64,000 nucleotides of DNA, from NCBI RefSeq assembly GCF_024323335.1, contig NC_066583.1:367595877-367659876 (forward strand), written 5' to 3'. Each line of letters begins with the position of its first letter. The stretch's first letter is position 1. Shown here one piece after another: positions 11,087 to 57,857 of this stretch. Origin of the DNA: Lathyrus oleraceus (taxonomy: Eukaryota; Streptophyta; Magnoliopsida; Fabales; Fabaceae). The notes under the pieces were generated by a model that searched no databases, was not told the DNA's origin, and saw only the letters and a list, made by a program, of their open reading frames with translations. The translations under genes and the position numbers were made by a program.

Positions 11087-11141
<55 letters not shown>

Positions 11142-11149: not shown

Positions 11150-11224
11150 GGGAAAAAAAAAAGGGAAATAACAATGAAAGGGAGAGTACATATTTGAAAA
11201 ATGAGAATGGAAAGGATATTGTTT

Positions 11225-11259: not shown

Positions 11260-11306
11260 TTTTAAGGAAATGAAATACAAGATGGAAAGGAAAAAGAAAA
11301 TAACAA

Positions 11307-12607: not shown

Positions 12608-12702
12608 TGTGATGAATTTTTGAAGGGATGATTTGGAAAGGAAAAGAAGTGTATTTGATATGAGAGAATTGTTTTGTGGTGAATGAAGGAAGTTTTGGTA
12701 GG

Positions 12703-12931: not shown

Positions 12932-13255
12932 ACCTCCTTTTTGGCAAGGCTTCAGTGGCGCTTCACAGAATTACTTTGGTAGCGTATTTTAATGTTTCAT
13001 TTTGCTTATGATCATTTTTAGTATGCAATTTTAATGCATTGTGCACGCTTACTTGCTTTGTATAATAATAATAGGTAACAACAGTAGAGCATAATAGCCA
13101 TTGCATAATAAAATTAATTAAACAGCTTCAATAAAAATGATCATAATGTATTACAGGGAAGGAAAATAATGAAATGAAATAGAAATAAACATGAATTCAA
13201 ACAACATTAATGAAAAAATCTAGCCTAAAACTAAATAACTTAGAAAGAAATATAA

Positions 13256-14560: not shown

Positions 14561-14831
14561 CTGGTTAGTGTTAACTAGAGAAAAGAAACATGAGTTTAAG
14601 TCAGGATTTGGCCAAATGCCGAAAGAAGAAAAGAATTATTATTATTATATATATATTTTTTTTTCTTTTTGAATAAATCAATAATGAATACTAAATAGAA
14701 ATTAAAAGAAATAATTAAGAGAAAAATAGGGAAATGATAATAATAATAGAATAATAAAATAACAGATTAATTTGTGGGTTGTCTCCCACTAAGCGCTTTG
14801 TTTAAATGTCGCAAGCTCGACAAAGAAACTG

Positions 14832-20222: not shown

Positions 20223-20311
20223 ACAAATCAACGAAAGAAAGAAAATAGAAGAAAAAGAAACCTTAGTCTCTACAGCGTAACGGAAGAGTTACGATATCGA
20301 TTGAATAAAAC

Positions 20312-20329
20312 TCCCCGGCAACGGCGCCA
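20312..20329 (-). other. Athila primer-binding site (tRNA-Asp)
   Basis: Minus-strand TGGCGCCGTTGCCGGGGA is complementary to the 3' end of plant tRNA-Asp including CCA. It lies 6 nt inside the 5' LTR, which confirms that the right-hand LTR is the 5' one. Confidence 0.9.
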
Positions 20330-20335
20330 AAAACT

Positions 20336-35054: not shown

Positions 35055-35102
35055 ATTGGCATCAGAGCAGGTTATAGGTAACTTATTCCTAGACTATCCG
35101 AA

Positions 35103-35460
35103 ATGGCTTCCGCAAATAATAATCTAGTCTTCAGAGATGGTGGTAGCAATAACAAGCCTCCACTATTCTGTGGTGAATACTTTGACTTCTGGAAAATTCA
35201 GATGAAGGCTCATTTAGAAGCACAAGGAGAAGAAATATGGGATGCTGCCCAAAATGGTCCTTTTGTTCCTACAACGGTTGTTAACGGCGTTGGTTCATCA
35301 AACCCTAAAACTTCATGGGATGATGATGATAAGAAGAAGGTCCTCTATGATAAAAAGGCAATAAATCTTCTTCAAAGTGCACTCAGCATGGATGAATTCT
35401 TTCGCATTTCGGCATGCACAACGACAAAACAAATATGGGATACCTTGGTAGAAACTCATG
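35103..35460 (+). pseudogene. Copia gag, N-terminal fragment
   Basis: An ATG at 35103 opens a Ty1/copia gag (UBN2-type) start: MASANNNLVFRDGG, PPLFCGEYFDFWKIQMKAHL, then KQIWDTLVETH. The frame is clean for about 119 codons, then hits a junction at about 35460 with reverse-transcriptase sequence in the opposite orientation. The capsid core is therefore incomplete. Confidence 0.75.
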
Positions 35461-35690
35461 TAAGCCGAGAAAATAATTCATTTTATCCATCATGGACATC
35501 TCGAATTCTCCTTGCATCATTGAGGAGAATTCTTCACACATATATTTGTTTGTTGATCCGAATATGATATCATCAACGTATACTTGTACCAACAATGTGT
35601 TGTTCTTGATTCTTTTGATGAAGAGAGTTTTGTCAACCTTGCCTTTTTCAAATATGCTACCACCATCTCTGAAGACTAGGAACATGTTAC
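35461..35690 (-). pseudogene. Copia reverse transcriptase fragment fused to gag start
   Basis: Read on the minus strand from the LTR at 35714: primer site, a gag start missing its ATG (35 bp deleted between two CTAG words), then a direct jump from VFRDGGS to the RT core with LVQVYVDDIIFGSTN (YVDD active site) and FEMSMM, ending at MNYFLG. All of gag, protease and integrase is missing between them. It meets the plus-strand gag fragment head-on at about 35460. Confidence 0.75.
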
Positions 35691-35713
35691 CTATAACCTG
35701 CTCTGATGCCAAT

Positions 35714-36971
35714 TGTAAGTCTGAAATTAGTCTAAGAGGGGGGTGAATTAGAAACCTTGAAATTTTCTTGTTGTAAGGATTATTTTTCTGGTTTATAATG
35801 GTGTTTAGGAAAATGGTAAAGTGCAGAAAAATAATGACACGGAGATTTATCCTGGTTCCCTTCACAATCCGAAGGTACATCCAGTCCCCTTTCCAACAAG
35901 AAAGAGATTTCCACTATTTGTTTGGACTTGTACAATGATCAACAAAGACCACCAAGAACAAACTCTTGGATTTCCAACAAAGTCCACTTATGAGAACAAT
36001 TCTCTCAAAGTGACTCTCTTGTTTCTAAACAACAAGGAAACCTTCTTAGTGATAAGAGAACAATCCTCTCCTATGCACCTCTTACTATCAAACAAGTAAG
36101 GATAAAACACTCACTATCTTAATTCCACTAATGCTGGAAAAATTAAGATATAAAGAACAACAAGTGTATAATTTAAATGGAAGTTTGAATAATCTGGAAA
36201 TATCTGCACATCAATCAAAGGATTGATCTTCTCCTTTTGGAATAATCAATCTCACAATGTTTATAGAAGTGTTCAAATGATGCATATGAATTTTGGACAC
36301 TTATCTTTGAAAATAGTAAACAAAGAAAGATTGTGAAAATTAATTTTTAAGGAGGTGATTTGCAATCTGAAAAATTTTAGTTTAAATATCCTTCTATGAA
36401 CCTCTTTAAACAAGTGCAAACAACCAATGGGTGCCATGGTTCATAGAGAAGATGCATGAATTAAAAATATGAAAAGTTGCAATTTTTCTACCAAAATTCC
36501 CAGTAGTAACCGGTTACCCAAATTGTGTTAACCGGTTACATTAATTGTAACATTAAGAAAAATTTAAATTTTAAACTATGTAACCGGTTACCGTGAAAGT
36601 GTTAACCGATTACATGCTAACAAAATCTTCCCAGAAATTGAATTTTGTTTCGGGTTAACCGGTTACCCCAAAAGTGTTAACCGGTTACCACTATTAAAAA
36701 AAGGAAAAATTGAGAACTTTTAAAAGTTGTAACCATTTTGAAATAAATTCTAAGTTTCCATATCATATTATGCATGCAACAATCAATTGAACACTTTATA
36801 TATAAACATTAACTAAGATTAAATTCCAATACCTTTGTGATCAATTTCTCGAGCGACTTTGAGCTAACTTTGTGTGAATTTGCTCTATTGAAGTCTTGAT
36901 CCATTCTTTGATGATTGACCCTGTACGTGCATCGTTGTCTTCATCAAAATACTCGAGAAGCCATGTCTTCA
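35714..36971 (-). repeat. Copia LTR, right arm of the inverted pair
   Basis: 1258 bp, inverted relative to 33783-35054. On its right it is preceded (in minus orientation) by the purine tract GGGGGAGAATG. On its left it is followed by a primer site. It therefore has both a polypurine tract and a primer site, unlike a normal terminal LTR. It carries the same AACCGGTT palindromes. Confidence 0.85.
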
Positions 36972-37645
36972 CATTCTCCCCCTTTTTGATGATGATAACC
37001 CGATTCAAAAGGCGATTCTTGAAAGAGTCATCGGACTTGATGTTCTAACACGTTTGCTCCCCCTATGATAATGCTCCCCCTAAATTCTTGATTTATTTGG
37101 AGACTTTGAAATTTTGAGTTCCTGCAAGTTTGTTAGATACATACAATATATGCTAGAGAATCTCTTCTCCCCTTTTGTCATTATCGAAAAGGATGGGACA
37201 AGACATATTAACAGTTTGGAGATCATGCATATAAAAAGCATACAAAACATCATATAATTAAGAGTCATAATATTTAAAAGATATGAATTAAAAAAATGAA
37301 ATTTATTTTTCAAAAAAAAAACAGAACAGCAGTGAGGTAACCGGTTACAGGAAATGTGGTAACCGGTTACGTTAAAGAAAAGTAACACAGAAGTCAAAAA
37401 CGCTACTGGTTAACCGGTTAACAGAAATGTGGTAATCGGTTACCTGATAAAAAAAAATGCCCCAGAATTCAAATTTGCTACTGGTTAACCGGTTAACAAG
37501 GATGTGGTAACCGGTTACTTATTGAAAATTTTGTAAAAAAGTAGCAATTAAGAGCTCAAAACACCATTTTTTCTATTCTTTGGTAAGATAATAATGTTTT
37601 TGCGTACCTTTTCCCTGGTTCATCATAAGACATGTTATGACGAGT
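36972..37645 (-). other. Copia 3' non-coding region
   Basis: The stretch between the RNase H stop and the polypurine tract. It holds a further three AACCGGTT pairs (37338/37360, 37411/37433, 37486/37508) with the same 22-bp and 73-75-bp spacing as in the LTR. No ORF resembles a protein. Confidence 0.75.
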
Positions 37646-38085: not shown

Positions 38086-38590
38086 TGTCGCATCCGCGAA
38101 AAAACAACCGGCGAGCTAAAAATAAAACACACAACACAGAGCCGCCACTGCGCGTTATTTATCCCAAGATAGGGAAAGGAAACGCTCAGAGAAACCTGGA
38201 AAGGAAATGGTCTTGCGACCAAAGAGACAGGGTAAGGGAGTCGGTTACGCAAGGGGAAGGTATTAGCACCCCTCACGTCCGTCGTACTCGACGGGATCCA
38301 CGTCCTAGAATAAAGAATAGGTTGCTAAACATCACACACACACAGGGAACGCAGGTGGGGTTAAGAGAAGGGAGCTCGATAAGGTATCGCACCTTATGCC
38401 TACATATCTTGTCTGGAACAAGAATCAGAGCCACTGTAGTTCGGCTTACACACGCCAAACAACACAAAACATACAAACAAGCAAGGGTGGCAAACATGGA
38501 GCCCGACAACCAATTGATGGAATTACGTCGGCATCCGAACCAAAACATACTCAAAAGGGCAAACGTGGAGCCCGACTGCCAATCACTGGG
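38086..38590 (-). repeat. Ogre A 3' LTR, left part (R-U5 end)
   Basis: In element orientation this is the LTR end: GGTGCTAATACCTTCCCC, GCGTAACCGACTCCC, GTGGCGGCTCTGTG, terminating GATGCGACA at 38086. It is cut at 38590 by element B. Its C/T-rich complement explains the spurious ORFs here. Confidence 0.85.
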
Positions 38591-40606
38591 TGTCATACCC
38601 CAAAAATTACCCATCATTTTTCCTAAAAAAAAAAAAAAAAAAAAACGAAAAAAAAAACGAAAAAAAAAAAACAAAAAAAAAAAAAAGGAAAAAAAAAAAA
38701 AAAAAAAAGGAAAAAAAAAAAGAAAAAAAAAAAATTTAATTAATTAATTAATTAATTAATTAAATAATTAAAATAAATATATAAATAAAATATAACAAAT
38801 TATTTTGGACTTGGGTCTCCCTCATTTCAAGCCCATTACCCACGAAATTAGTCTATAAATACTGAAGTTTCAGAGGGGGAGTTAGACTTGGAGTTTACAC
38901 TGGGAGATTCACTGGAGAAAGAAGGAAGAGAAGCAAAACACTCTGAGGTTTCCTTGGAACAAAACCTTGAGGAAAAAGAAAGAGAGAGAACAGAGAAGGA
39001 CGGATAGAAACTTTGGCATAGGAACCCTGCCTACCCGGAGAATTCAGAGTAAAGAAACCCTGAAGGCAGCCCATCTGCACCGAAGCCATCGCCGTCCAAT
39101 TCCCGCTGCCTAACTTATTCCGATACTACAAGTGGTCAATCCCTTCAACCTTGAATTGGCAAACAGGTTTGCGTATCTCTATTGTTTATACTTTCAATTG
39201 GCCATATCTACATATATAATGCATCATGATTAAAGGTTGATATATAATTTGCTTTCGTATGGGAATTTAAATATGCCTGAATACCCTGAATGTTTGACCA
39301 TGTTATTCCTGTGATAAAATGCCATAAAATTCAAAGTTCCTAACATGGAGCTGTTTTCAAATTCAAAATCCGTGGCCTTCGCTAGGCGAGGCAGAGGCGA
39401 ACGAGACAGTACCTGATTCTTCTAGTCTGTTTTTTTTATGTTTTTATCATAGCCATGCATTATTCATCCTATCCTATTTATTGTTGTGATATTTCTCCGG
39501 TGTAATCTTCGATTGCACCCTGATTTGGTGTTCTGACATGTTTCTTTTTTTGAGTTTCGTAAAGGTTCACATATCCCAGGAAAAGGTTATTGGCTAGGTA
39601 TTCCACTTTATTTGTGGGATACCCTTGTGGAGTTTCACCCTAAATTAATTTTTTAATGTATTAATTTCTAATGTATTAATTTTTTAATATATTATTTTTA
39701 ATAATTTTAATGTGGAGTTTCATCCTAATTATATAATTAATTGTAAAACTTTGCCTTTGAATAAGTGATCTTGGACCTCTCTTTGTTGCCTTACGATTAC
39801 GATATTACGGTCATGTCCCGCGAACGTGGGGATACCCTTAGCAAAGACCCTTCGGTTAAATCATCATAAAATAAATTATAGTCCCTCGGATGTTGCCTTC
39901 GAATATACAACTTTGTCCCTCGATGACCCTCCGATGTTGCCTACGGTTAAAAGATGATAGTCCCTTCGAATGCTAAGATATCCTCGCAACTGTTGCCTTC
40001 AATGACCTATCGATGACCCTACGATGACCCTTAAACATCCAAAGGATAAAACTACTTATTTCTCAATAATAAGGACAGTTTTACCCTCATAAGGATAGGA
40101 AATACTCATAAAGACCTTGGGTCGGTATAACTCTTAATTGCTGGCTCACAACCTAAAACATTTTTTCACACCTCACACCTTTCAAAATACCTTCAGAAAA
40201 TCACCACTTGGTATACATTCATACTAGAATCATTACCGAGTTATATTTTTCTAAACAATTTTCAAAACTAAACGAGATAATCACTTTGTATACATTCATA
40301 CAAGAATCATTACAAAGTTAAATTCTCTTTTCAAAACAATTTTTCTAAACAATTCACAAACACTTTTTTTTTTCAGACAAAAATAATATAAGTGATCGAG
40401 CAATTAAGAGCCCATGGATAACCATGGATACAAAGGGTGCTAACACCTTCCCTTTGTATAATGTACCTCCCGAACCCAAAATCTAAATTAAGGTCTTTCC
40501 TGTTCTTTTCCACCTTTCCTTATTGGATAAAAGAAAAGTCGGTGGCGACTCTTGCTAACCGCGACATTGCGATTAAAACCACAAAAAGTCCAGTTCACCG
40601 TATGAC
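38591..40606 (+). repeat. 5' LTR of element B
   Basis: It starts TGTCATACCCC and ends CGTATGACA. A ~105-bp A-rich tract with scattered C/G (38625-38735) is followed by a (TTAA)n run. TATAAAT at 38854-38860 is the likely core promoter. R/U5 carries GATAACCATGGATACAAAGG near 40420. Confidence 0.92.
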
Positions 40607-40610
40607 AGAA

Positions 40611-41554: not shown

Positions 41555-44500
41555 ATGGCTCTCGAACAAACTGTCAAAGATCTCCAGGCCCAGAATGCTC
41601 AATTCCAGGAAATGATGCTGAGCTTATCTAAGGGGCAGGAAGAACTGAAAGCTCTTTTGATGGAGAAGAAGAAGGACCAGAAACCTGTGGGTTACATCAA
41701 CCCGGGGAGAAGGCTTAAGGGACAGGTTACAGGAGTCAAGATTAGAATTCCGAAGGATTCAGAAGAAGAGACCGAGAATGATTCGGAAGATGAGAATCCT
41801 AATCTCGTCAATTCTGAGGACGACGATGAAGATTATGAACATGAACAGTACTCTCCGAAGGATGATAAGTACAAGTTGCTGGAAGAACGTATGCTAGCTA
41901 TGGAGGGGCAGAAAGTGCCCGGTCTGGATTTCGAAAACTTGGGTCTGGTCTCTGATGTGGTCATTCCCCGCAAATTCAAGGTTCCCATTTTCACTAAGTA
42001 TGATGGTGCCTCTTGTCCTCAGATGCATCTAAGGGCTTATGTGAGAAAGATTCAGCCGCACACTACTGATAAGAAACTGTGGATCCATTTCTTCCAAGAG
42101 AGTCTGTCTGGCACACAGTTAGAGTGGTATTATCAGCTTGAGAGCTCTAACATCCGCACATGGACTGATTTAGCAACAGCTTTCTACAAGCACTACCAGT
42201 ATAATTCTGAGTTAGCGCCTACTCGGCTACAGCTACAAAATATGACTATGGGCTCTAAAGAAAGTTTCAAAGAATATGCTCAAAAGTGGAGAGATTTGGC
42301 TGGCAGAGTCAAACCCCCTATGACTGATCGAGAGTTAGTGGACATGTTCATGGGTACACTGACTGGCCCATTCTACAGCCATCTACTGGGAAGTTCCTCG
42401 TCAGGTTTCACTGAACTTATCTTGACAGGTGAACGGGTTGAAAGTGGCATTCGAAGTGGAAAGATACAGGCAGCTACTTCTGCAAGCACCAAAAAGTCCT
42501 ATCAGGGAAAGAATGAATCAAATGCTGTGTACAGTGAGAGGAAGCATAACAAGAAGAATCGTGACCATACTGTTGGGGCAGTTACAATTGCCGCACCGCC
42601 ATCTCAGAACTTCCAACACAGACAAGACAGGTCGAGAAGACAGTTTACCAAGATCAATATGACTTTAACCCAAGCACTGCAGAGTATGTTAAAGGCCAAT
42701 TTGATTACCCTCAGAGGCCCTCCTGCAAATCCCAACACTACTTCTCCTCGTTATAATCCCAACGCCAGGTGTGCCTATCACTCCGATAGCCCCGGGCATG
42801 ATACGAATGATTGCTGGTTGTTGAAGAACAAGATTCAGGATATGATCGACGCTGGAGAAATTGAATTTGATCCTCCGGCGACCCCCAATGTCATCACAGC
42901 ACCTATGCCTAATCATGACCAGAATGTTAATGTTGTGGACGACAATTCTCACGTTACTGACGTTGCTGATTTAGCATCTCCTCTCCTGATCGTTAAGAAG
43001 AATTTATTGCAAGCTGGTTTATTTCCAGGTTGTGCTGAAGATTGCGATCTCTGTGTACTCCGACCCAATGATTGTTTGAAGTTGAAGAACGGCATTCAAC
43101 GGCTGATGGATGATCGTACAATTCTATTTGGAAGGGTTCCTAAGGTGGACAACTCTATTGAAGAGATATCTGTGATTGCTAGGTCCAAAGCTCCAGTGAA
43201 GATTACCGCTACTAGAGTGCCTGTGAAGATTACCGCTGAGCCCAAAGTGGCTCCCCTGATTATTACCGCACCTGGCCCCGTGCCATATTCCTCCAGCAAA
43301 GCTATTCCGTGGAACTATGGAGGCGACGTTTACATCCATGGCATAAAGCAAGTTGGTAGTTCTGCTAATCCTAATGATATTGTGGGGACTAGTAAAATTA
43401 CTCGAAGTGGAAGGATCTTCTCTCCAGAAATCTCACCTCCCGCTCCCGAAATTCGAGGAAAAAGACCAGTCAATCCTCCTCAGTCAGAGACATCGGTCGA
43501 AGTTACTTCTGAAGATGTTGCCAAACAGGAAATGGAAGAGATGCTGAAAATCATCCGTAAGAGCGATTTTGATGTAGTGGAACAATTGGGGCATACTCCG
43601 TCTAAAATCTCAATGTTGTTATCCTCTGAATCACATGCCAATGCATTGATGAAATTCTTGAAGACCGCTCATGTGCCTCAAGAAACATCCGTCGATCAAT
43701 TCGAACATTATGTTGCTAATTTGACTGTTGACAATGGCCTAGGCTTTTCCGATGCTGACCTGACGCCAGCAGGAAAGAATCACAATAAAGCTCTGCATAT
43801 CTCCATCGAGTGTGAGGGAATCACCCTGGCTCACGTGTTGATCGACAACGGCTCTTCCTTGAATGTGCTCCCGAAAGCTGTACTCGATAAATTTGACTAC
43901 AAAGGCATTGAACTGAAACCTAGTGATGTTGTGGTGCGTGCTTACGATGGTGCGAAGAGTGTTGTCTATGGTGAAGTGGTTCTCCCTATCAAGATAGGAC
44001 CTCAAGTCTTCAACACTACCTTTCATGTGATGGACATTCGTCCCGCCTACTCCTGCTTGTTGGGGCGCCCTTGGATCCATGGGGCAGGTGCGGTAGCTTC
44101 GTCGCTTCATCAAAAGCTGAAGTATCCAATAGCAGGCATGGTTGTCACTGTATGTGGAGAAGAAGAGTATATTGTCAGTAGTGTGCAAGCCTTCAAATAC
44201 GTCGAGATGGATGGTGAATTCTTTGAGACTCCTTCTCAGTCATTTGAAGTGGTTCCTCCACCCAGTCCTGTCCTTAAGCCAACTCCCCTTGTGCCCAAGG
44301 TTGTTCGTGCTCCCCCTGTCATGATCTCTCTGAAAGATGCTCAAGCCGCGATTGAAAGTGGTGATCGTATTGGTTGGGGTCGACTGATTAATGTACCGTA
44401 CAAGTCTGATAAAGCTGGCCTGGGGTTTAACTCTGGAAAGATAGTCAAAAATCAGATTAATGCTATGGAAGATGCTGATAGTGATTGCGACTTGGATAGC

Positions 44501-44581
44501 TGGATTTTCCCAACAATTGGTGACGGACTCGACAATTGGAAGGCTGAAGACACTATCCCGATTTCCTTTAGTCGAGAGTAA
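41555..44581 (+). CDS. Element B Gag-protease (1008 residues, intact)
   Basis: Structural protein and protease of an Ogre-type element. ATG at 41555 opens MALEQTVKDLQAQNAQF, an N-terminal coiled coil (residues 1-45), then an acidic stretch (70-105). The capsid-like region lies around 150-310 (WYYQLESSNIRTWTDLA, FKEYAQKWRDLAGR). A Cys/His cluster CAYHSDSPGHDTNDC (about 405) is the Ogre version of the nucleocapsid finger. The protease active site is VLIDNGSSLNVLPK (about 765), followed by SCLLGRPWIH. The frame ends EGAG-like …FSRE with TAA at 44579. The GA-GTAATTG at the stop resembles the splice donor of the Ogre intron. The uninterrupted ORF contrasts with the ruined pol. Confidence 0.9.
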   Translation: MALEQTVKDLQAQNAQFQEMMLSLSKGQEELKALLMEKKKDQKPVGYINPGRRLKGQVTGVKIRIPKDSEEETENDSEDENPNLVNSEDDDEDYEHEQYSPKDDKYKLLEERMLAMEGQKVPGLDFENLGLVSDVVIPRKFKVPIFTKYDGASCPQMHLRAYVRKIQPHTTDKKLWIHFFQESLSGTQLEWYYQLESSNIRTWTDLATAFYKHYQYNSELAPTRLQLQNMTMGSKESFKEYAQKWRDLAGRVKPPMTDRELVDMFMGTLTGPFYSHLLGSSSSGFTELILTGERVESGIRSGKIQAATSASTKKSYQGKNESNAVYSERKHNKKNRDHTVGAVTIAAPPSQNFQHRQDRSRRQFTKINMTLTQALQSMLKANLITLRGPPANPNTTSPRYNPNARCAYHSDSPGHDTNDCWLLKNKIQDMIDAGEIEFDPPATPNVITAPMPNHDQNVNVVDDNSHVTDVADLASPLLIVKKNLLQAGLFPGCAEDCDLCVLRPNDCLKLKNGIQRLMDDRTILFGRVPKVDNSIEEISVIARSKAPVKITATRVPVKITAEPKVAPLIITAPGPVPYSSSKAIPWNYGGDVYIHGIKQVGSSANPNDIVGTSKITRSGRIFSPEISPPAPEIRGKRPVNPPQSETSVEVTSEDVAKQEMEEMLKIIRKSDFDVVEQLGHTPSKISMLLSSESHANALMKFLKTAHVPQETSVDQFEHYVANLTVDNGLGFSDADLTPAGKNHNKALHISIECEGITLAHVLIDNGSSLNVLPKAVLDKFDYKGIELKPSDVVVRAYDGAKSVVYGEVVLPIKIGPQVFNTTFHVMDIRPAYSCLLGRPWIHGAGAVASSLHQKLKYPIAGMVVTVCGEEEYIVSSVQAFKYVEMDGEFFETPSQSFEVVPPPSPVLKPTPLVPKVVRAPPVMISLKDAQAAIESGDRIGWGRLINVPYKSDKAGLGFNSGKIVKNQINAMEDADSDCDLDSWIFPTIGDGLDNWKAEDTIPISFSRE

Positions 44582-44684: not shown

Positions 44685-46073
44685 ATGGACTTTTTTGCAT
44701 TCAAATATTGCGCTCTTTATCTTTCCTGTCATTTTTCAAACAAGCTATGTTTTCTTGCACACACTCACGTAACAATTTGCCGATCCATATCCACTCTGGA
44801 TCCTATTGGTAATGACTCTGCTACTGCTCATTATGACTTTGAAAATCCGATCTACCAAGCCGAGGATGGAAGTGAGGAAGATTGTGAAGTCCCTGGAGAA
44901 CTTGCCAGACTGGTACTACAAGAAGAAAAGACCATACAGCCGCATGAGGAATCAATTGAAATTGTAAATCTGGGTACTGAAATAGACAAGAAAGAAGTCA
45001 GAGGTTTCTTGGGACACTTGAATTACATTGCCCGATTCATTCCACACTTGACTGCTACCTGCAAACCCATCTTCAAATTACTAAAAAGGAAAAATCAAGA
45101 GATGGCATGGAATGATGAATAACAAAATCAGGAAATATCTCTAAGAACCTCCAATTCTGATGCTACCAGTTGAAGGAAGATCTCTAACTATGTATTTGAC
45201 CGTGTTAGAAAATTCAATAGGGTGTGATGGGGCAACATGACGAGTCTGGTCGAAAAGAGCATGTCATACACTGCCTTAGCAAAAGGTACCGACTGTGAAA
45301 CAAGATACTCTCAGCTCGAGAAAGCTTGCTGCGCTTTGGCTTGGGCTGCTCGCCGACTAAGACAGTATATGTTGAATCATACCACTTTATTGATTTCTAA
45401 GATGGATCTTATCAAATATACATTCGAGAAACCTGCTGTCTCCTGAAAGAGTTATCACTGATAATGGTACTAAACTGAACTCTGCATGCAGTTCAAAATA
45501 AAACACCATAACTCTTCTCCGTACCGGCCAAAGACGAACGGCGCCGTGGAGGCTGCTAACAATATCAAGAATATAACAGTAACATACAAAGACTGGCATG
45601 AGATGTTACCTTTTGCTCTTCGTGGTTACCGCACTTCGACAGGGGCAACCCCTTTCTCTTTAGTCTATGGAATGGAAGCCGTTTTATCAGTGGAAGTTCA
45701 GATTCCCTCTCTAAGAATTGTGAAAGATGCAGGCTTAGATGAGGATGAATGGATTCAAACTCGACTCGATCAGATAAATCTGATTGATGAAAAGAGACTT
45801 GCGGCTGTTTGTCATGGGCAGATATATCAGAAGCGCATGACCCAGGCATTCAACAAAAAGGTCAAGAGACGAGTGTACCAAATCGGCGACTTAGTTATCA
45901 AGCGTATCATTCTACCACAAGGTGATCCCAGGGGCAAATGGACTCCCACATACGAAGGGCCATTTGTAGTTAAGAAGGTATTCTCTGGTGGAGCCATGAT
46001 GCTTGCTACAATGGATGGCGAAGAGTTCCCGCATCCTGTGAACGCTGACATAGTTAAAAAATACTACGCATAA
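44685..46073 (+). pseudogene. Element B pol remnant with two large deletions
   Basis: Pieces of an Ogre pol in order. The first covers the N-terminal linker (TAHYDFENPIYQAEDG…), which jumps from IVNLGTE straight to KEVRGFLGHLNYIARF, losing nearly the whole reverse transcriptase. RNase H follows (DCETRYSQLEKACCALAWAA), ending at FEKPAV. A second jump goes to RVITDNGT in the integrase core, losing the archaeal-type RNase H and the zinc finger. The integrase C-terminal part from 45486 is open to 46073 (PYRPKTNGAVEAA, ATPFSLVYGMEAVL, GKWTPTYEGPFVVKKVF). Compared with the 1160-codon pol of element A, roughly 60% is gone. It is not functional. Confidence 0.88.
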
Positions 46074-47317
46074 AAGAGACCCGCTAGGTCGACGTACCTA
46101 GGCAAAAGTAAGGGCATCCCGGCGAACCAAAAGGGTTCGGGCAAAAATTAGGGATAAACATATAAAGACGTACACCCGGCAAGTCGAAAACCTGAAAAGG
46201 CGGCTTGAGCAAAAAAGGGTATCCCGGTGGACTGAAAACCTGAAAAGGCGGTCCAGGCAAAAATTAGGGATTAAAGCGTATGACTATGCCCCGTTCTCTG
46301 TCTGCTTCAACCAAGTTCAAGGGACTGAACAAGCCAATCACTTCTATCCGACAGCAGGAGATGAGATGCTTGAAGACATAATGACAGTGGTGGAATTGGA
46401 ATCGATAGGACTTTTTCTGCATAGCTTTCTCTTTGTTTGCCTGACAATTTCCTCTTACTAGGATTTCTGTCTCCTTGTACTCAAATTGCCTATTTATAGG
46501 CCCTCTTTCAAAATCAATACAATTTCATTTCCAAAAAGATGCTTTTGTTTTACTTTCTCTGTTTTGTTTGCGTAAACGTCCATTGATTTAACTTGAATTG
46601 ATATATGCATTTGAATATGATCAATGTTTATCAAAATACATGCATAAAATAGCAATGACAATTACTAAAGGACTTCAGGATCGAGGAGAAGGTCTAACCA
46701 TGCTTCCAATGAATCCGCTACCAATTCTATTCCCCCAGCAAGTCTGTTATTCCTCAGAAGAAATTAGCAGTATTCCCCGGCACAGCCAGTTACTCCCCAA
46801 CAGAGGTCGGCATCATCAGACAGATTGATCATCTCATCCATCCTCAGCCAAGATCTGTGGAATATTTCTACCATCAGACAGAATCAAGAACCCCCTGCCG
46901 AGAAAGGGTCATCGTTACAAATATCTCCAATCAGTAGATGGGGATTTATTTTCCCCAGTAGAGTCCCCAAGCAGAACTTCTCATACGCATAACTCATTCA
47001 TTACATCATTTCACAGCATACGCATGCATACAACATTCGCATTTATTTTAGCATAACACGAAACATCTCATACATCATGACATAGCATGAAGCTAACTTT
47101 TCTTTGCAGGTTATTTATCCTCCTGATATAATCAAAATAAAAGGTTCATTCAGACAGACACCTTTATCAATCACATTCAAGATTCAGATACATATTTCAA
47201 ATACAGTTCATGGGAACATTCATTCTGACAACACTTCGATATCCTCCTAACGATGGCATCTTTAAGCCCATCCCAGACATTTATTGCAAGTACAACATAT
47301 ACAGGTTATCAGATACA
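46074..47317 (+). other. Element B 3' region, proximal part with four hairpins
   Basis: Directly after pol there are four hairpins: 46084-46101 (CTAGGT/ACCTAG), 46123-46139 (CGAACC/GGTTCG), 46180-46207 and 46228-46255 (both with loop AAAACCTGAAAAGG). GGCAAAA words separate them. The rest is non-coding, with degenerate CCCCAGC/CAGTAGAG-type repeats around 46730-46980. Confidence 0.7.
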
Positions 47318-48003
47318 GCCTAACGTACGGTTCATTCTGATTCAGCCCAACATATGACTTCTTCAGCAACTCCAATGCGGTCTAACGTACGACCCATTTG
47401 GACCTTCAAATCCTCAGATGCTGCCTAGCGTACGGTACATTCAGGGGTGTAGTCTAGCGTACGACTACTTTCTTCTTCGGATACAGCCTAACGTACGGCT
47501 CATTCTGCAACTCAGGTACGATCTAGCGTACGATCCATTCTGAACTCCAGCAACTCCAACGCGGTCTAACGTACGACCCGTTTGGATCTTACAACCCTCA
47601 GATGCTACCTAACGTACGGTACATTTCTGAAGTGTAGTCTGGCGTACGACTACCGCTTTCATCATCAGATGCGGCCTAACAGACGACTCATTCTGCGACG
47701 GTCTAACGTACGACCCGTTCGGATGTCCATCCCCTCAAATGCTACCTAACATACGGTACATTTCTGAAGTGTAGTCTAACGTACGACTACCCCTTTCGTC
47801 ATCAGATTCAGCCTAACGTACGGCTCATTCTGCAACTCAGATACGATCTAGCGTATGGTCCATTCTGATCCTTTATCCCCAACAGTATATGACACACTCC
47901 GACTCCCCAGCGAAGTCGGCAGCCTAATGGATGACTCATTATTCGGTCTAATGTACGACCCAGTGTGGCACCCATGTCTTCAAATTGGCCTAATGTACGG
48001 CTC
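47318..48003 (+). repeat. Array of about 19 hairpins with constant loop TAACGTAC
   Basis: Units share TA(A/G)CGTAC flanked by arms that change together: AGCC/GGCT, GGTC/GACC, TACC/GGTA, GTAGTC/GACTAC and GATC/GATC. The unit order recurs as a higher-order repeat of about 185 bp (with a shorter 137-bp version). Sixteen of 19 units keep pairing if G-U pairs are allowed. Confidence 0.8.
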
Positions 48004-48192
48004 GATCTGAAGCTTTCGTCATCAAACCTCCCGGATGGCATCTTTAAGCCCATCTCCATCAAGACCAACTGTCGATTCTCAAGTGCAAATTTTTGGGGCA
48101 TTCTAGTGTTCAATAATCTTCCACCTCCAGACCATGAATGGCATACACGCCATCCTAACTCTCTCGGTTCAAGAATATTGAACAGGGGCAGC

Positions 48193-48291
48193 TGTCATAC
48201 CCCAAAAATTACCCATCATTTTTCCTAAAAAAAAAAAAAAAAAAACGAAAAAAAAAAAAAAAAAAAAAAAAAAACGAAAAAAAAAAAAACG

Positions 48292-48357
<66 letters not shown>

Positions 48358-50249
48358 ATTTAATTAATTAATTAATTAATTAATTAATTAATTAATTAAT
48401 TAAATAATTAAAATAAATATATAAATAAAATATAACAAATTATTTTGGACTTGGGTCTCCCTCATTTCAAGCCCATTACCCACGAAATTAGTCTATAAAT
48501 ACTGAAGTTTCAGAGGGGGAGTTAGACTTGGAGTTTACACTGGGAGATTCACTGGAGAAAGAAGGAAGAGAAGCAAAACACTCTGAGGTTTCCTTGGAAC
48601 AAAACCTTGAGGAAAAAGAAAGAGAGAGAACAGAGAAGGACGGATAGAAACTTTGGCATAGGAACCCTGCCTACCCGGAGAATTCAGAGTAAAGAAACCC
48701 TGAAGGCAGCCCATCTGCACCGAAGCCATCGCCGTCCAATTCCCGCTGCCTAACTTATTCCGATACTACAAGTGGTCAATCCCTTCAACCTTGAATTGGC
48801 AAACAGGTTTGCGTATCTCTATTGTTTATACTTTCAATTGGCCATATCTACATATATAATGCATCATGATTAAAGGTTGATATATAATTTGCTTTCGTAT
48901 GGGAATTTGAATATGCCTGAATACCCTGAATGTTTGACCATGTTATTCCTGTGATAAAATGCCATAAAATTCAAAGTTCCTAACATGGGGCTGTTTTCAA
49001 ATTCAAAATCCGTGGCCTTCGCTAGGCGAGGCAGAGGCGAACGAGACAGTACCTGATTCTTCTAGTCTGTTTTTTTTATGTTTTTATCATAGTCATGCAT
49101 TATTCATCCTATCCTATTTATTGTTGTGATATTTCTCCGGTGTAATCTTCGATTGCACCCTGATTTGGTGTTCTGACATGTTTCTTTTTTTGAGTTTCGT
49201 AAAGGTTCACATATCCCAGGAAAAGGTTATTGGCTAGGTATTCCACTTTATTTGTGGGATACCCTTGTGGAGTTTCACCCTAAATTAATTTTTTAATGTA
49301 TTAATTTCTAATGTATTAATTTTTTAATATATTATTTTTAATAATTTTAATGTGGAGTTTCATCCTAATTATATAATTAATTGTAAAACTTTGCCTTTGA
49401 ATAAGTGATCTTGGACCTCTCTTTGTTGCCTTACGATTACGATATTACGGTCATGTCCCGCGAACGTGGGGATACCCTTAGCAAAGACCCTTCGGTTAAA
49501 TCATCATAAAATAAATTATAGTCCCTCAGATGTTGCCTTCGAATATACAACTTTGTCCCTCGATGACCCTCCGATGTTGCCTACGGTTAAAAGATGATAG
49601 TCCCTTCGAATGCTAAGATATCCTCGCAACTGTTGCCTTCAATGACCTATCGATGACCCTACGATGACCCTTAAACATCCAAAGGATAAAACTACTTATT
49701 TCTCAATAATAAGGACAGTTTTACCCTCATAAGGATAGGAAATACTCATAAAGACCTTGGGTCGGTATAACTCTTAATTGCTGGCTCACAACCTAAAACA
49801 TTTTTTCACACCTCACACCTTTCAAAATACCTTCAGAAAATCACCACTTGGTATACATTCATACTAGAATCATTACCGAGTTATATTTTTCTAAACAATT
49901 TTCAAAACTAAACGAGATAATCACTTTGTATACATTCATACAAGAATCATTACAAAGTTAAATTCTCTTTTCAAAACAATTTTTCTAAACAATTCACAAA
50001 CACTTTTTTTTTTTTCAGACAAAAATAATATAAGTGATCGAGCAATTAAGAGCCCATGGATAACCATGGATACAAAGGGTGCTAACACCTTCCCTTTGTA
50101 TAATGTACCTCCCGAACCCAAAATCTAAATTAAGGTCTTTCCTGTTCTTTTCCACCTTTTCTTATTGGATAAAAGAAAAGTCGGTGGCGACTCTTGCTAA
50201 CCGCGACATTGCGATTAAAACCACAAAAAGTCCAGTTCACCGTATGACA
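48193..50249 (+). repeat. 3' LTR of element B
   Basis: Same structure as the 5' LTR, with TATAAAT at 48494-48500 and a longer poly-A tract (48229-48360). Confidence 0.92.
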
Positions 50250-53200
50250 CTGGGCTTACGTCGGCATCCGAACCCAAACATACATAATCAGATAACAAGT
50301 AAACACACGCAAAAAAGAAAAACGTTGCCCGGAGTGGTCTCGCACGACCACCTGCCTACATACCTCGTCTGGAACGAGGATCAGGGCGATGTAGTTCCCC
50401 TGAAAGGGACTGAGTTGCTAGCCAGAAACCAGGGAAAGACACACTACTAGGGAGCTGGACTCGAGCCTAGTGTTGTCATGCATCGTTTACCCTAAGTTCG
50501 GTTTTCTATCCTACTTGCATAAGCAAACTATTCCTATCCAGGAAAGAAGCAAGCACACAAGCATACAAAATGATTCAAGCATACATCAAATGAAAACAAG
50601 CATCTCAAACAGATATCCACACAGCACGCACTATAACCAAACAAGTGGCTCACACAATAGGTTTGACTGCCGAAGCGAGTCGTCTGTACGGGCTGGGTTT
50701 GCTCTTAACCTTGCCATTACGAGGCTAAGGTGAAGCAGATGAAAAGGTGAAGTGAGGATCAGACCTCACAGCTCTTATCCCTAACCAGGGAGAGCTTCTG
50801 ACAAATGAGCATGGGTCCAGAATAGGGGAACCCTTCTATACTCGATGACTCCGACTCGATTGTGCGACAGCACAGATCTTGGGCTTGTGTTCTCAATGCT
50901 ACAACCATGTAATGGGAGCAATGAGAAGACTCACAGAATAGTGGGGGGTAGACTGCATACCCCTACCTTCCACCAATTGCCTTATTTAAAGGACTTTTAC
51001 CTGCTTGGCACGAAAAATAAACAACCACAATCATTGCCTCTTAAGGAGGACTTCAGACATTTGCCCGGCCCGGTAACAGCCGGGTCTCCCAGACTACATG
51101 AAGTCAAGAGGACCTACCTCAAGCGGTTTACACAACCGAGCAGCGGCTACCAAGCAAGTTCTTAAAAGAACTAGAGCGACTAAAGGTACCTGTACAAAAG
51201 CTAACCAGTTAATAACTCAGACAAACAATCAGAAAACAACAAAATTAATCAGTCAAACTATGCAAGCCAAGGCACACAAAGCAAGCTATGAGCTCAAGCT
51301 CAAGCTTCACAACCTACAAAACCAAGTTATGTTAGTGTACAAACATTAAGCAACATCAATTGAATTGATTTGGACCATTCTCCATATACATTGCACCTTT
51401 TTATCCTGAAAAATCAATCAAATGTTAGCAACTAGACCACTAGGCCAAGCCTAGGGTCCAAAGGCAAGAAAAATTCCTAAACAGCAAGGTATCTCTAACC
51501 AAACTCAAATTAATGTCAAACAAAAGCCAACACAATTAATCCCATGTCCATATCATTCATTATATTCATTTCATGCACAAAACAATCCAAATTAGTTCAA
51601 ATGAAGCACCAAACATCCAAACAGAACTATTGCATTCAAATCCATATCAAAACCATTCTAAAAATTCTCAAATAAATTACACCTAAACAGGACCTAACCT
51701 AGGTCTAGCATGTCAAATTTTAGCCTAATTGGACCAAGATAACTATGTCAATGAAAATCAACAAAAACAGACACAATTACATGCCCCAAATCACAACATC
51801 AACATATGCTTCCACTTCAAAAATTCATAACTCAATGAAAACAAAAAAGAAATGGATGAGACCAAAACAGGGATGTCCTATCATGTGTCTATTACAAGCA
51901 TATCAAATTTCATGATCATTCAATACCATATGAGCATTTCACATCAAATCTACCAACCTATGTCACATGAACTTGTAAATTCAACCACCAGAGATGAAAA
52001 ATAGCAATCAATTCGAAAATGCCACATAAAATTCCACAAAAATTCACATAGCATCTTAACATGTTAATCAACCATCATGCAAAATTTCACATCATTTCAC
52101 CAAGTCTAAGTCACTCAAAAAAATCCAGCAAGTTGACATAATGAGGTGTGACACACATTGTCACACCTAAGTTCCAAAATTTGTATCTCAATGACCAGGT
52201 ATCAAAAATTCATAAAATGCACATGTAAATCTCCATTGATGTGTCTAGAATCACCACAAAAATTTTCAGACATTTATTTGTAACTATGAGAATTTCACAT
52301 TGGAATTGGTAGAATGTATCAAAAATGAGTACATGTTAAAGATCCCTAGGTCAAACATTATTCCTACCATGCACAACTTTGACCAATAGGTCAAAAAACA
52401 TCTACAGTCAACAAGGAAGTCAAAGAAAAATTCCTATATTTTTCTGAATTTTCTATGATTTTTTATGAATTTTATAACATGTTAATGATTTTTTTAAGAA
52501 TTATTTGAATTAATTAAATGTACAGTGGCACTATCGTAATTAGTTACAGGCGGGGGCGGTAAACACCGTATTTGAAAATTCAAACGGAATTTCAGATCAA
52601 ATGCTGCTTTGTTCATCGTTTTCGCCCAGATTTTCCAGAAAAAGCAAGAACATGAAGATCCATGAATCTCAACCAAAATGAACAAATGGATAGCCGTTGG
52701 ACTCGTCTAAACATGTAGATCTCAAATATCAACTTAATCTAACCTAAATGTTGCTATATCACACGAATCGATCAACTTAGGGTTTTGGTTCGAAATTTCA
52801 AATCCAGATTTCATGCGCTACAGTTATCTATTTCTAAAACTAATCATATCACTGAACTCTACGTGGAATGAACTTTAAAACGCACATAAGCTTCAAACAA
52901 ATCATGAGATTCGAAAAATTGCAAAACCTGGAACGGCAGTGTCGTGTTGATGTTCTTGACGCGTTTTGGCTTCAAACAGATACGGAACAAGCTTCAAGAA
53001 GTTGAATTCCAGGCTCAGGTTCAATTGATTCCACTCCTAGCGCGCGAAAACTCAACTTGCCATTGATGGAGCTCGTGTGTGCAGTCACGATCCAAGGCCT
53101 TTTCCAATCCAAACTCCACAAACAGTTGATGATGATGATGAAAGGAGATTGATGCAAAAAGAAATTCGAAGATTGACCAAGATTTGGAGAAGTTTGATGA

Positions 53201-54716: not shown

Positions 54717-57650
54717 GCTGCCCCTATTCAATCCACTATGAACCTGTCGATACGAATAGCCTCGGCTTTCGGATGATCAGGATGAAGAGTGATTGAATAC
54801 CAAGAACAGACGAACAATTTGCACTCTGATGGGATAATAATTAACGCCTGTCAGCATCGGCGAAGAAACAAACTCGAAACGTCGACCTGGGTACCAAAAT
54901 AAATGGTAACACAGGGATAACCATGGCTTGAACACCACTCATCCGCTCGGGATTATTATTCTCCTTTTTCTTCTTATGCTTTTCTTGAACCCCGAAATTT
55001 TCTCCTTTCTTTTTTTTCATTTTCTTGAACCCCGAAATTTTCTCTGCGCAAACGATCCTCGGATCTCTGCATTTGAACCCCAGAAAATGCCTCAGCATTC
55101 CTTTTTGCCAAAATAATGAACCCCATTCTCCAGTTTGAACCCCAGTCGCCTGACGATAACTCGCTATCGCCAATATGAACCCCGTTCTCCAGAAAATGCC
55201 TCAACATCTCCTTTTCTCCGTTTGAACCCCAGAACATGCCTCAGCATTTCTTTTCTCCATTTGAACCCCAGGACAATGCCTCAGCATATCCTTTTCTCCA
55301 TTCTCCCGTGATAATTCCGTTGGCAACATCGGAAATAACACCAAACCACTTTGAGGGCGACATGTCAGAGTGTATACCTTCACAAAAGGAAGGTAGCATG
55401 TGTATCTCTTCCTCAGAAGACACCTATAACGACCTCCATTGGCCTCAGCCAGAGTCTAAGGTAACACATGAACAGAAGATAATCCTGAGGACCTCATCCC
55501 GGATATAATCTTCAACTCCAATCTCCATTTGAACCCCAGAAAATACCTCAGTATTTCCTTTTCTCCATTTGAACCCCAAAATTGCGCTGATCGCATAACG
55601 TCCTCTGATTTTATTTCCATCTCCGTCCGACGGAAACATTTCCTCCAATATCGCACTACTGGGGAACATTGCTGATCTGACGTCATGATGCTAGACTCCT
55701 CGGAGTAACATCCAACTCCTGTCTCGCACGACAGAAATCTCCTCCAGTATCGCACTACTGGGGAACACCTTTGATCTAATCATGAGGCTAAACTCCTCGG
55801 AGTACCACCTTCACTTTCTGGCAAAACCACTTCTCAAACGGTAACCACGGCTTGAGACTAGCTTATGCTTGCAATGATACATGATCTTTTTCTGCGTAAT
55901 GCTCCATAATTATGGAAATGCTACGCGATTTATTTTTCTATGCAATATGCTATGCTTACGCTACATGATGAATGCATAAAAAGAAATATCCCCCTCAAGG
56001 GACTCTTCTGGGGAATACGAGACACTCTGCTGAGGAACTCGTCCATACTCCAATCTCCACCCCACCGGGGAATAGCACTGCTGCTGGGAATAAGGCAACC
56101 CTTGCTGGGGAAGAACCTCCTTTGCACCCAACCCGCTCGAGAAACTGCTGGGGATAAACACCACCAACACTCTGTGGGGATACAACAGTCTTTGCCTTGC
56201 TGGGGATATCAATCCTGACTCCGCTTCGGGAAAACCCTCACAGATACCTGCTGACTTCACTGGGGAAATGCTCACAGCAATTCCACTGGGGAAATAGCAA
56301 TCTCCAGACTCATCTGGGGATGCATCACTCTATCACCTGCTGGGCAACCATCCTGACCCTGCTAGGGAAACGAACACTACTCCGCTGGGGACAACCCATG
56401 CAACCCATAGGTAGAATCAACTCAGCTGGTGATGCAAAAATCCGTCCGCTACAGGACTTTGTTCAATCCACTGGTAGGATGAACACTGCTGGAGATATAT
56501 TTCATTGAAAACCCGCTCCACTCGGGGAGTAACAACCTTCAGACCTGGCTGCTGAGGAAACATCATCGTAAACCTGCCGGATATCACCATCCTGACTCGG
56601 CTGGGGAATTCACAGACATTGGATCTGCTGGGGGCTAGCCCTCTGATTCTGCTTGGGGACCTAGCTGGGAAACGAGAAAAGTTGGTACAATACCCGTCGA
56701 CTCGTCGAACCACGGTATCCACCTCCCAATCTCGTATCAGCTTTCCACTTTTGAGAACTCCCAGACTCGTCTGGACCTTTTCTGCTCCATCATCTTGTAT
56801 TCCAAATCGCCCCGCGCTCGACGAGAAACGTACTCTTGGGATTTATACAGAAATTTCAACCTTTCGACTTTGAAGAGTCTTCTTGGTTAATTTCAAAGGT
56901 CGTCGGACGTCTCGTCGTCTCTCCGTTCCTTCTTCATGCACTCGTCCCTGACCGGACTCTGCGGGGAATTACATACTCTCCAATTTTCTTATTTTGAAGA
57001 GTCTTCTTGATTATCATCAAGGACCGTCGTACATCTCAACGCCTTCATCATTCTTTCATTCCTTCGTCCCTGAGCGAACTCTCTGGGGATCTGTTACAAA
57101 GCTTCCACATCACAACCTGCAAGTGAGTGAAAATAACTAACAGTACCTGCAAAACAGATCGTCAGATAAAACCGTGCCCCAGGCGTGTCAAGATTTCAAC
57201 ACTTGGGTCACTCAACCTTCCAAATAAGATTTCAAGCTTTCCATCTTATAAACATGCATTGGAAGGAACCTGTATGTATTAAAATGCAACATTCTTTATC
57301 AACAATATCTGGATGTTTTTGCAATCAAAGCGGTAATGAAAAACAAAAACCAAATTATTTGACTGAATATGCATTTTATTGATTGGAAAAGTGTGGCTCA
57401 AATGAGCAATACAAAAGGAAGCAATTCCTGAAAAGAGGTAATTGCACAAAAGGAAAAATCTATCTTAATGGCAATGTGAAACCCGTGATCTCATCGAGTT
57501 CTAACTCGGTTACACCCCATATGTCCTCAGACTCTCCATGCTCTCTGCCTTCTGAACAAGACACTTCTGACTGATCCCTACCGGGTATTATCCATGATGC
57601 TTTAACCAAAGCGCAAACGATCATGCGGGACGCAGTTGTTCGTTTCACTC
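54717..57650 (-). other. Ogre A 3' non-coding region, repeat-rich
   Basis: Non-coding sequence between LTR and pol. It holds CTCA-loop hairpins among TTTGAACCCCAG repeats (55070-55560), a duplicated ~118-bp unit with CTCCTCGGAG hairpins (55620-55830), a run of degenerate 35-45-bp units containing CTGCTGGGGA (56000-56650), and a ~125-bp tandem duplication containing GAAGAGTCTTCTTG (56870-57100). Confidence 0.7.
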
Positions 57651-57857
57651 CCTCTTTTGCCTGGACCGCCCTTTCGGGTTTTCAGTCCACCGGGATACCC
57701 TTTTTTGCCCAAGTCGCCTTTTCAGGTTTTCGACTTGCCGGGTGTACATTTTTCATTTTTATCCCTAATTTTTGCCCGAACCTTTCTTTCTGTTTTTGGT
57801 TCGCCAGGATGCCCATTTTTGCCTGGACTATTTTATTCTTCTCGTCCAGCGGGTCTC
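57651..57857 (-). other. Four hairpins directly downstream of Ogre A pol
   Basis: Stems at 57823-57849 (CTGGAC/GTCCAG), 57777-57803 (CGAACC/GGTTCG), 57710-57737 (CAAGTCG/CGACTTG) and 57662-57689 (TGGACTG/CGGTCCA), in minus-strand order. They correspond one-to-one to the hairpins after element B pol. Confidence 0.7.

What the first reader, a model, noticed from the sequence alone, without database searches (positions are those of the whole stretch)
47318..48003. Hairpin array with constant loop TAACGTAC and five interchangeable stems
About 19 units keep TA(A/G)CGTAC while the arms switch among AGCC/GGCT, GGTC/GACC, TACC/GGTA, GTAGTC/GACTAC and GATC/GATC, ordered in a ~185-bp higher-order repeat. 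A dimeric protein site would conserve the arms and free the spacer; here it is the reverse. The loop contains ACGT and GTAC, which are self-complementary, so identical loops could pair between RNA molecules much like the kissing-loop dimer signals of retroviruses. Several deviations are G-U pairs (TGCC/GGTA, GATC/GGTC, GGCC/GGCT), favouring RNA over DNA structure. I know of no description of such an array in plant retrotransposons.
Basis: partly seen in the sequence, partly recalled or inferred. Interest (0 to 1): 0.9.

Follow-up and report, generated by a model that had tools for sequence, protein, structure and literature searches.

The report
Retrotransposon tail with fixed-loop RNA hairpins
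The tail region of a legume jumping gene carries a row of small RNA hairpins whose loops stay the same while their stems keep changing in matched pairs, and a related jumping gene next to it carries its own row with a different loop, which suggests these long-unexplained repeats act as an RNA recognition signal.

Summary
In the 3' untranslated region of a Tat/Ogre-type retrotransposon (LTRs 38591-40607 and 48193-50249), 19 units lie at 47317-48003; 16 have a 4-6 bp stem around a TARCGTAC-like loop, and 3 are broken in stem and loop together. Five stem types keep pairing (86% of 171 cells, shuffled 68.4%; covariation score 0.624, shuffled 0.276, 0 of 500). New here: a scan of the 64 kb that knew nothing of the loop found one other such place, the 3' region of the neighbouring Ogre on the minus strand (55054-55803). 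There 11 of 13 YGAG tetraloops sit on stems of 4 or more pairs, with eight different arm sequences (covariation score 0.968, shuffled 0.221). Tat/Ogre 3' tandem repeats are known and called of unknown function; fixed-loop, variable-stem hairpins were not described in the texts I saw. Best reading: a multivalent recognition array in the genomic RNA, read through its loops, perhaps by Gag. Kissing-loop dimerisation is possible but not favoured. No copies from other genomes could be examined, and folding energies are only mildly unusual.

The parts
38591..40607 (+). 5' LTR of the array-bearing element (TGTCAT...ATGACA)
   Evidence: 98.65% identical to the 3' LTR over the 1999 columns aligned; ends read; CTGGG at 38586-38590
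48193..50249 (+). 3' LTR
   Evidence: CTGGG at 50250-50254
41555..44581 (+). gag-pro reading frame, 1008 aa
   Evidence: Retrotrans_gag E 1.4e-13; Asp_protease_2 E 6.2e-4, below its cut-off; homologues in Lathyrus oleraceus and Vicia villosa
45148..46262 (+). pol remnant and start of the 3' region; most of pol is missing
   Evidence: pieces 74-83% identical to the sister pol region; sequence
46084..46262 (+). post-pol module: four hairpins, each followed by RGCAAAA
   Evidence: 6 Watson-Crick pairs before all four; alignment with the sister element
47317..48003 (+). hairpin array, 19 units with a common loop
47317..47332 (+). unit 1, type A AGCC/GGTT (one G-U)
47344..47359 (+). unit 2, broken AGCC/GACT, loop CAACATAT
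47379..47394 (+). unit 3, type B GGTC/GACC
47422..47437 (+). unit 4, type C TGCC/GGTA (one G-U)
47449..47468 (+). unit 5, type D GTAGTC/GACTAC
47485..47500 (+). unit 6, type A AGCC/GGCT
47520..47535 (+). unit 7, type E GATC/GATC
47563..47578 (+). unit 8, type B
47606..47621 (+). unit 9, type C TACC/GGTA
47634..47653 (+). unit 10, type D
47673..47688 (+). unit 11, broken GGCC/GACT, loop TAACAGAC
47700..47715 (+). unit 12, type B
47743..47758 (+). unit 13, type C, loop TAACATAC
47771..47790 (+). unit 14, type D
47810..47825 (+). unit 15, type A
47845..47860 (+). unit 16, type E GATC/GGTC (one G-U)
47921..47936 (+). unit 17, broken AGCC/GACT, loop TAATGGAT
47945..47960 (+). unit 18, type B, loop TAATGTAC
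47987..48002 (+). unit 19, type A-like GGCC/GGCT (one G-U)
55054..55803 (-). sister array in the 3' region of the neighbouring Ogre: 11 of 13 YGAG tetraloops on stems of 4 or more pairs
55645..55761 (-). second fixed-loop set in the sister 3' region: GTGCGA on three hairpins (CCAGTA/TACTGG, CCAGTA/TATTGG, and one with CTGTC/GACAG)
57655..57849 (-). post-pol module of the sister element: four hairpins followed by GGCAAAA
57858..61358 (-). sister pol: RT, RNase H, second RNase H (RVT_3), integrase

Best explanation
The array is a cis-acting RNA structure of the element's genomic RNA: sixteen intact small hairpins (and three broken ones) in a row, 0.2-0.9 kb upstream of the 3' LTR, each presenting nearly the same apical loop on an interchangeable stem. 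Shown here by sequence: the stems are kept as pairs while the loop is kept as sequence, and a related element has the same kind of array at a similar place with another loop. Inferred: many copies of one loop make a multivalent docking site for a protein that reads the loop. The most likely reader is the element family's Gag, so that the array marks the genomic RNA for assembly or packaging, and different lineages carry different loops. The element here has lost most of pol yet kept the array, as a mobilised non-autonomous element should keep its cis signals. My confidence in the structural part alone is about 0.85; the figure below is for the whole mechanism.
For: Query array: 86.0% of 171 cells paired against 68.4 +- 2.3 shuffled, score 0.624 against 0.276 +- 0.037 (0 of 500), best slid register 0.227; inner stem alone 96.1% and 0.709. 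One unit per stem type: 20 of 20 inner pairs, reached by 1 of 120 permutations, the true one, so the signal does not rest on copied units alone. Stem and loop fail together: 3 of 3 broken stems have 2-3 loop changes, 0 of 16 intact stems have more than 1. Blind scan: of 254 windows only six, three over each array, reach 3 different stems on one loop; 0 of 400 shuffles do. Sister array: 11 of 13 YGAG on stems of 4 or more pairs, against 5 of 294 on the + strand and 5 of 330 on the minus strand below 54716; score 0.968 against 0.221 +- 0.080, 0 of 500. UGAG and CGAG fit the YNMG tetraloop consensus and are named among viral YNHG tetraloops in passages of PMC5633025. Change on both sides between the two elements: first post-pol hairpin CTAGGT/ACCTAG against CTGGAC/GTCCAG. 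Both arrays precede the 3' LTR by a few hundred bases. For Ty3, both UTRs and POL are said to be needed for packaging (passage of PMC11381356). Both Gag frames share C-x2-H-x5-H-x4-C (visible in the alignment; reading it as a zinc knuckle is my inference).
Against: No protein partner, transcript or packaging data. Local folding is only slightly better than shuffled (60-nt windows: mean z -0.48 sense, -0.35 antisense, 2% below -2 on either strand); the whole array gives z -2.60 on only 20 shuffles and the antisense strand -1.94. In the fold some units pair with distant units. The outer stem is not significant across the five type representatives (12 of 120 permutations as good). Packaging and dimer signals of the retroelements in the passages seen are 5'. 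A strict CCHC pattern was not found in either Gag frame. The 19 units are duplicated copies, so independent events are few. YGAG merges TGAG and CGAG and was named after looking; in a cruder whole-window count without locality, low-complexity loops such as TTTT had more different arms (10) than TAACGTAC (4).
Confidence: 0.4

Rival explanations
1. Kissing-loop dimer signal: identical loops on two genomic RNAs pair through the self-complementary ACGU/GUAC core and may extend into a duplex.
For: GTAC kept in 14 of 16 intact loops; the RYGU core of 15 of 16 can pair with itself if G-U is allowed, and of 0 of the 3 broken units (counted from rows). The fold pairs some distant units with each other. 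Nested-only dimer energies are lower than two monomers for two query units and also for one YGAG unit, which any hairpin would show.
Against: The sister array uses YGAG, with no Watson-Crick self-complementarity. ACGT itself is lost in 8 of 16 intact loops. The loop changes in the 16 intact units are all transitions, and half of the possible transitions in the core would keep wobble pairing anyway. Dimer sites of Ty1 and Ty3 are 5'.
Confidence: 0.17
2. RNA export, stability or translation element of the 3' UTR (working like a constitutive transport element or a 3' translation enhancer), useful because Ogre-type gag-pol carries an intron and unspliced RNA must leave the nucleus.
For: Position between pol and 3' LTR; the Figure 1 legend of PMC3305785 shows a gag-pol intron in GmOgre; a repeated internal loop plus constant apical loop suits a host RNA-binding protein.
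Against: No partner known. No complement of 7 or 8 nt to the loop elsewhere in the element, which argues against loop pairing with the 5' leader. The position of the animal CTE and the absence of its export receptor in plants are recalled, not tested.
Confidence: 0.17
3. No function: tandem duplication of a few chance hairpins, with arms kept matched by hairpin-templated correction during reverse transcription or replication.
For: Tat/Ogre 3' regions are hypervariable tandem-repeat regions (passages of PMC7004042); types recur in 137- and 185-bp blocks; folding energies are modest.
Against: Does not explain why five stems share one loop, why loop and stem fail together, why G-U pairs persist, or why a second element has the same design with another loop.
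Confidence: 0.18
4. DNA-level array: binding sites for a GTAC- or ACGT-reading plant factor, or cruciforms.
For: CGTAC resembles the core of SBP/SPL factors and ACGT that of bZIP factors (both recalled, not tested).
Against: Such a site does not need compensating arms; the YGAG core of the sister array has neither motif; A-C cells are depleted on the sense strand.
Confidence: 0.05

Closest known systems
Hypervariable 3' UTR tandem repeats of Tat/Ogre elements (Macas et al. 2009, not read; described in passages of PMC7004042)
   Same: Same lineage, same place between pol and 3' LTR, repeats that vary between elements
   Different: Treated as a source of satellites; 0 occurrences of hairpin, palindrom, dyad or secondary structure in PMC7004042
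Five interleaved minisatellites A-E of soybean Gmr9/GmOgre (PMC3305785; parts 1 and 2 of 3 of the text read)
   Same: Five repeat types interleaved in higher-order blocks downstream of the coding region of an Ogre; function stated as not known
   Different: Repeats reported as dissimilar apart from a shared end of B and C; no structure proposed in the parts read. Whether they hide fixed-loop hairpins could not be tested here
Retand pol-to-3'LTR tandem arrays (PMC11963269, passages)
   Same: Another Tat lineage, arrays in the same region, function stated as unknown
   Different: 0 occurrences of hairpin, secondary structure or stem
Ty1 and Ty3 dimerisation and packaging sites (PMC5454406, PMC11381356, passages)
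   Same: Stem-loops of LTR-retrotransposon genomic RNA
   Different: 5'-located single hairpins, not arrays of interchangeable stems
3' UTR stem-loop of LINEs recognised by their reverse transcriptase (PMC5135761, title and abstract start in a search listing only)
   Same: A 3' UTR stem-loop by which a retroelement's own protein recognises its RNA
   Different: Non-LTR elements; not shown to be an array; not examined further
YNMG (UNCG-like) tetraloops (PMC5633025, passages)
   Same: YGAG of the sister array fits the consensus
   Different: There one loop in a viral replication element; here many copies in a row. The 8-nt loop of the query is not a tetraloop

Membership tests
Tat/Ogre lineage (minus-strand sister element) | second RNase H (aRH) between RH and integrase | tested here: met
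   RT_RNaseH 426-528, RVT_3 594-712, Integrase_H2C2 804-861 in window:57861-61358:-; definition from passages of PMC6317226. That RVT_3 is the aRH is my reading
Tat/Ogre lineage (array-bearing + element) | aRH in its own pol | not testable with these tools
   Most of pol is missing; remnants 74-83% identical to the sister pol region, gag-pro 42% identical over 688 columns
Tat/Ogre lineage (array-bearing + element) | primer binding site type | not tested
   sequence after the 5' LTR printed, not compared with tRNAs
LTR retrotransposon | two LTRs with TG...CA ends and a 5-bp target duplication | tested here: met
   TGTCAT...ATGACA and CTGGG on both sides
Tat/Ogre 3' tandem-repeat array | tandem repeats between pol and 3' LTR | tested here: met
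   137-bp TRF row 47562-47833 and repeat families D2-D6 and D8
Kissing-loop dimer signal | self-complementary apical loop | tested here: inconclusive
   GTAC in 14 of 16 intact loops, ACGT in 8 of 16 (rows); not self-complementary in the sister array
Kissing-loop dimer signal | location near the 5' end of the genomic RNA | tested here: not met
   Array ends about 190 bp before the 3' LTR
Kissing-loop dimer signal | loop-dependent dimer in vitro | not testable with these tools
   needs RNA
YNMG tetraloop (sister array only) | Y-N-(A/C)-G loop on a stem | tested here: met
   11 of 13 YGAG in 55040-55810 on stems of 4 or more pairs; three-dimensional fold not testable
Described RNA families | match to an Rfam model | tested here: not met
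   46100-48200: one sub-threshold match, mir-297, E 3.8, at 46593-46638, outside the array; the sister 3' region was not searched

The most novel reading that the evidence does not exclude
The unexplained hypervariable 3' repeats of Tat/Ogre elements are lineage-specific RNA barcodes: arrays of hairpins whose fixed loop is the code word and whose stems are free, read by the cognate Gag to choose its own genomic RNA and that of its non-autonomous kin. Change of loop between lineages would then separate packaging systems within one genome.
Probability: 0.2. Interest if true: 0.92.

Novelty: new variant of a known kind. Interest (0 to 1): 0.72.

Why it matters
Tat/Ogre elements are abundant in legume genomes (recalled), and their 3' repeat arrays seed satellites (passages of PMC7004042), yet two texts seen call the function of such arrays unknown (PMC3305785; PMC11963269). 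If the arrays are selected RNA structures, that question becomes directly testable, and plant LTR retrotransposons gain a candidate recognition signal. It also changes how the repeats should be compared: by loop and pairing, not by sequence identity, which would miss related units with different stems.

Tried and rejected
Rfam search of 46100-48200: nothing relevant. Viral-contig and bacterial-genome pattern scans: 2 and 6 stretches with one 16-mer hit each, each fetched locus with one core only, read as chance. Relatives of gag and of the sister pol in viral contigs: none. The protein search placed gag-pro with legume proteins (only the 7995 candidates sharing most words were scored) but gives no DNA. 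Long-range partner of the loop: three loop variants tried, 6-nt complements only, none of 7 or 8 nt. Pairing inside the loop (U1-A7, A2-U6 with a bulged C8) is allowed by all 16 intact loops as read by eye, but costs 2.2 kcal/mol against the open loop in the four units tested, so not adopted. Local folding z-scores were weak and are reported as such. G-U enrichment as proof of RNA: not upheld; only A-C depletion. The outer stem as independent proof: dropped, 12 of 120 permutations as good. Strict CCHC search of Gag: no match. Row handling: one search left out hairpins whose arm and loop together hold fewer than 3 different letters, and counted stems as different only if they differ at 2 or more places; one search kept only stems with at least 4 Watson-Crick pairs; one search used 5 of the 19 units, one per type; the RGCAAAA module was first noticed by eye. 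In one search the loop of unit 17 was set one base too far; searches use 47925.

Full report
What is there. The window is a piece of a legume genome with several retrotransposons. The gag-pro frame at 41555-44581 matches proteins of Lathyrus oleraceus (pea) and Vicia villosa, and is 96% identical to an ENA protein listed without a name. It belongs to an element with LTRs at 38591-40607 and 48193-50249 that are 98.65% identical over the 1999 columns aligned, have TGTCAT...ATGACA ends and are flanked by CTGGG. Only remnants of pol are left. It appears to sit inside the 3' LTR of a second, minus-strand element whose LTR begins at 54716; the far end of that LTR was not identified. The second element's pol has RT, RNase H, a second RNase H and integrase in that order, the order given for Ogre and Retand in passages of PMC6317226.

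The array. CTARCGTACG occurs 11 times in the window, only in the array. Nineteen units can be read; 16 have stems of 4-6 pairs and 3 do not. Types B, C and D recur with spacings of 184-185 and then 137 bp (repeat families). Many units have a second, outer stem across a 3x3 internal loop.

Is it structure? On the 19-unit alignment the two-stem model pairs 86.0% of 171 cells (shuffled 68.4 +- 2.3) with a covariation score of 0.624 (0.276 +- 0.037; 0 of 500), and no slid register exceeds 0.227. The inner stem alone gives 96.1% and 0.709, the outer stem alone 77.9% and 0.557; in both, 0 of 500 shuffles reach these two values. For the inner stem the count of further pair types is not unusual (169 of 500 shuffles as high), nor is the number of pairs with a change on both sides (239 of 500). 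Because units are copies, I repeated the test with one unit per type: inner stem 20 of 20 pairs, reached by 1 of 120 permutations, the true one; outer stem 20 of 25, reached by 12 of 120. So the inner stem stands by itself and the outer stem does not. In the three units with a broken stem the loop has 2-3 changes; in the 16 intact ones never more than 1. These three may descend from one broken ancestor.

Strand. Among all 171 cells there are 20 G-U and 9 A-C; shuffling gives 26.6 and 18.4. A-C is depleted and G-U is not enriched, which favours sense RNA only mildly. Folding energies are modest: whole array z -2.60 sense, -1.94 antisense, +1.12 for the neighbouring stretch 46600-47310, each on 20 shuffles; 60-nt windows average -0.48 and -0.35 for this array and -0.71 and -0.60 for the sister array. 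The signal is in the pairing pattern, not in energy.

A second case. A scan that knew nothing of the loop (254 windows of 750 bp, loops of 4-10 nt, stems of 4 pairs with at most one G-U, stems counted as different only if they differ at 2 places) gave a maximum of 3 in six windows, three over this array and three over 54751-56000; 55 windows gave 2 and 193 gave 1; 400 shuffles gave 1 (320) or 2 (80). A cruder count over the whole window without locality had ranked low-complexity loops such as TTTT higher. The second place is the 3' region of the neighbouring Ogre. On its sense strand 11 of 13 YGAG tetramers at 55040-55810 sit on stems of at least 4 pairs, with arms ACUC, AUAC, UGGC, CUUC, AUGC, AUGU, AUAG and GAUC. 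Over the whole 3' region it is 16 of 40; elsewhere on the minus strand 6 of 52 and 5 of 330, on the plus strand 5 of 294. The covariation score is 0.968 against 0.221 +- 0.080. Merging TGAG and CGAG was decided after looking; TGAG alone reached 3 different stems in the blind scan. A GTGCGA loop appears on three hairpins with two kinds of stem. Directly after pol both elements carry four hairpins, each followed by RGCAAAA; all eight have at least 6 Watson-Crick pairs, while 201 of 3000 random positions reach 6. The first of them has changed on both sides between the elements (CTAGGT/ACCTAG, CTGGAC/GTCCAG). Of all RGCAAAA in the window, 4 of 18 on plus and 6 of 18 on minus have such stems, eight of these ten being the post-pol ones.

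How it may work. Constant loop with free stem is what is expected when a partner reads the loop and needs the stem only as a holder. Both arrays lie in the 3' untranslated RNA shortly before the LTR: about 190-875 bp before it in one and about 340-1,090 bp in the other. The two lineages have different loops, and the parts of their gag-pro frames that align are 42% identical, while the aligned pol pieces are 74-83% identical as DNA. The + element lacks most of pol but keeps the array, which fits a cis signal, although the loss may also have followed insertion. Dimerisation, export or stability functions and a neutral origin remain open and are scored as rivals.

Known or new. Tandem repeats in the 3' region of Tat/Ogre elements are known (passages of PMC7004042; PMC3305785 parts 1 and 2 of 3; passages of PMC11963269). 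The last two call the function unknown, and none of the text I saw proposes hairpins. Five searches of the open-access library (listing 20 of 65, 6 of 6, 2 of 2, 12 of 13 and 10 of 59 papers) showed no title or abstract start that describes fixed-loop hairpin arrays in LTR retrotransposons; one (PMC5135761) describes a 3' UTR stem-loop of LINEs and Alu. Subscription papers, including Macas et al. 2009, were not read. I rate it a new variant of a known kind.

Limits. No other genomic copy could be examined: the genome search did not answer 11 times, and I had no plant collection. Everything rests on two elements in one window, on sequence alone.

Noticed in passing
55054-55803 (minus strand): YGAG tetraloop hairpin array with many stems in the 3' region of the neighbouring Ogre element; made part of the argument.
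   Followed up: yes
46084-46262 (+) and 57655-57849 (-): Four hairpins after pol in both elements, each followed by RGCAAAA; arms of the first differ on both sides between the elements.
   Followed up: partly
55645-55761 (minus strand): Loop GTGCGA on three hairpins with two kinds of stem.
   Followed up: partly
8410-22098: Athila-type element on the minus strand with 1763-bp repeats 99.94% identical (ATHILA ORF-1 matches), so probably a young insertion.
   Followed up: no
33781-36973: Inverted copies 33781-35106 and 35663-36973, 96.3% identical, with TAACCGGTTA palindromes at or near them.
   Followed up: no
38523-38551 and 50256-50283: Both flanks of the array-bearing element hold a nearly identical stretch of about 28 bases (TTACGTCGGCATCCGAACC...AAACATAC) beyond the CTGGG duplication (read); not explained.
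   Followed up: no
41555-44581: The gag-pro frame of the array-bearing element is open, but its protease motif reads DNG where the sister frame reads DTG, as might be expected of a non-autonomous copy.
   Followed up: no
28506-28811: Tandem repeat with periods of about 97 and 49 bp.
   Followed up: no
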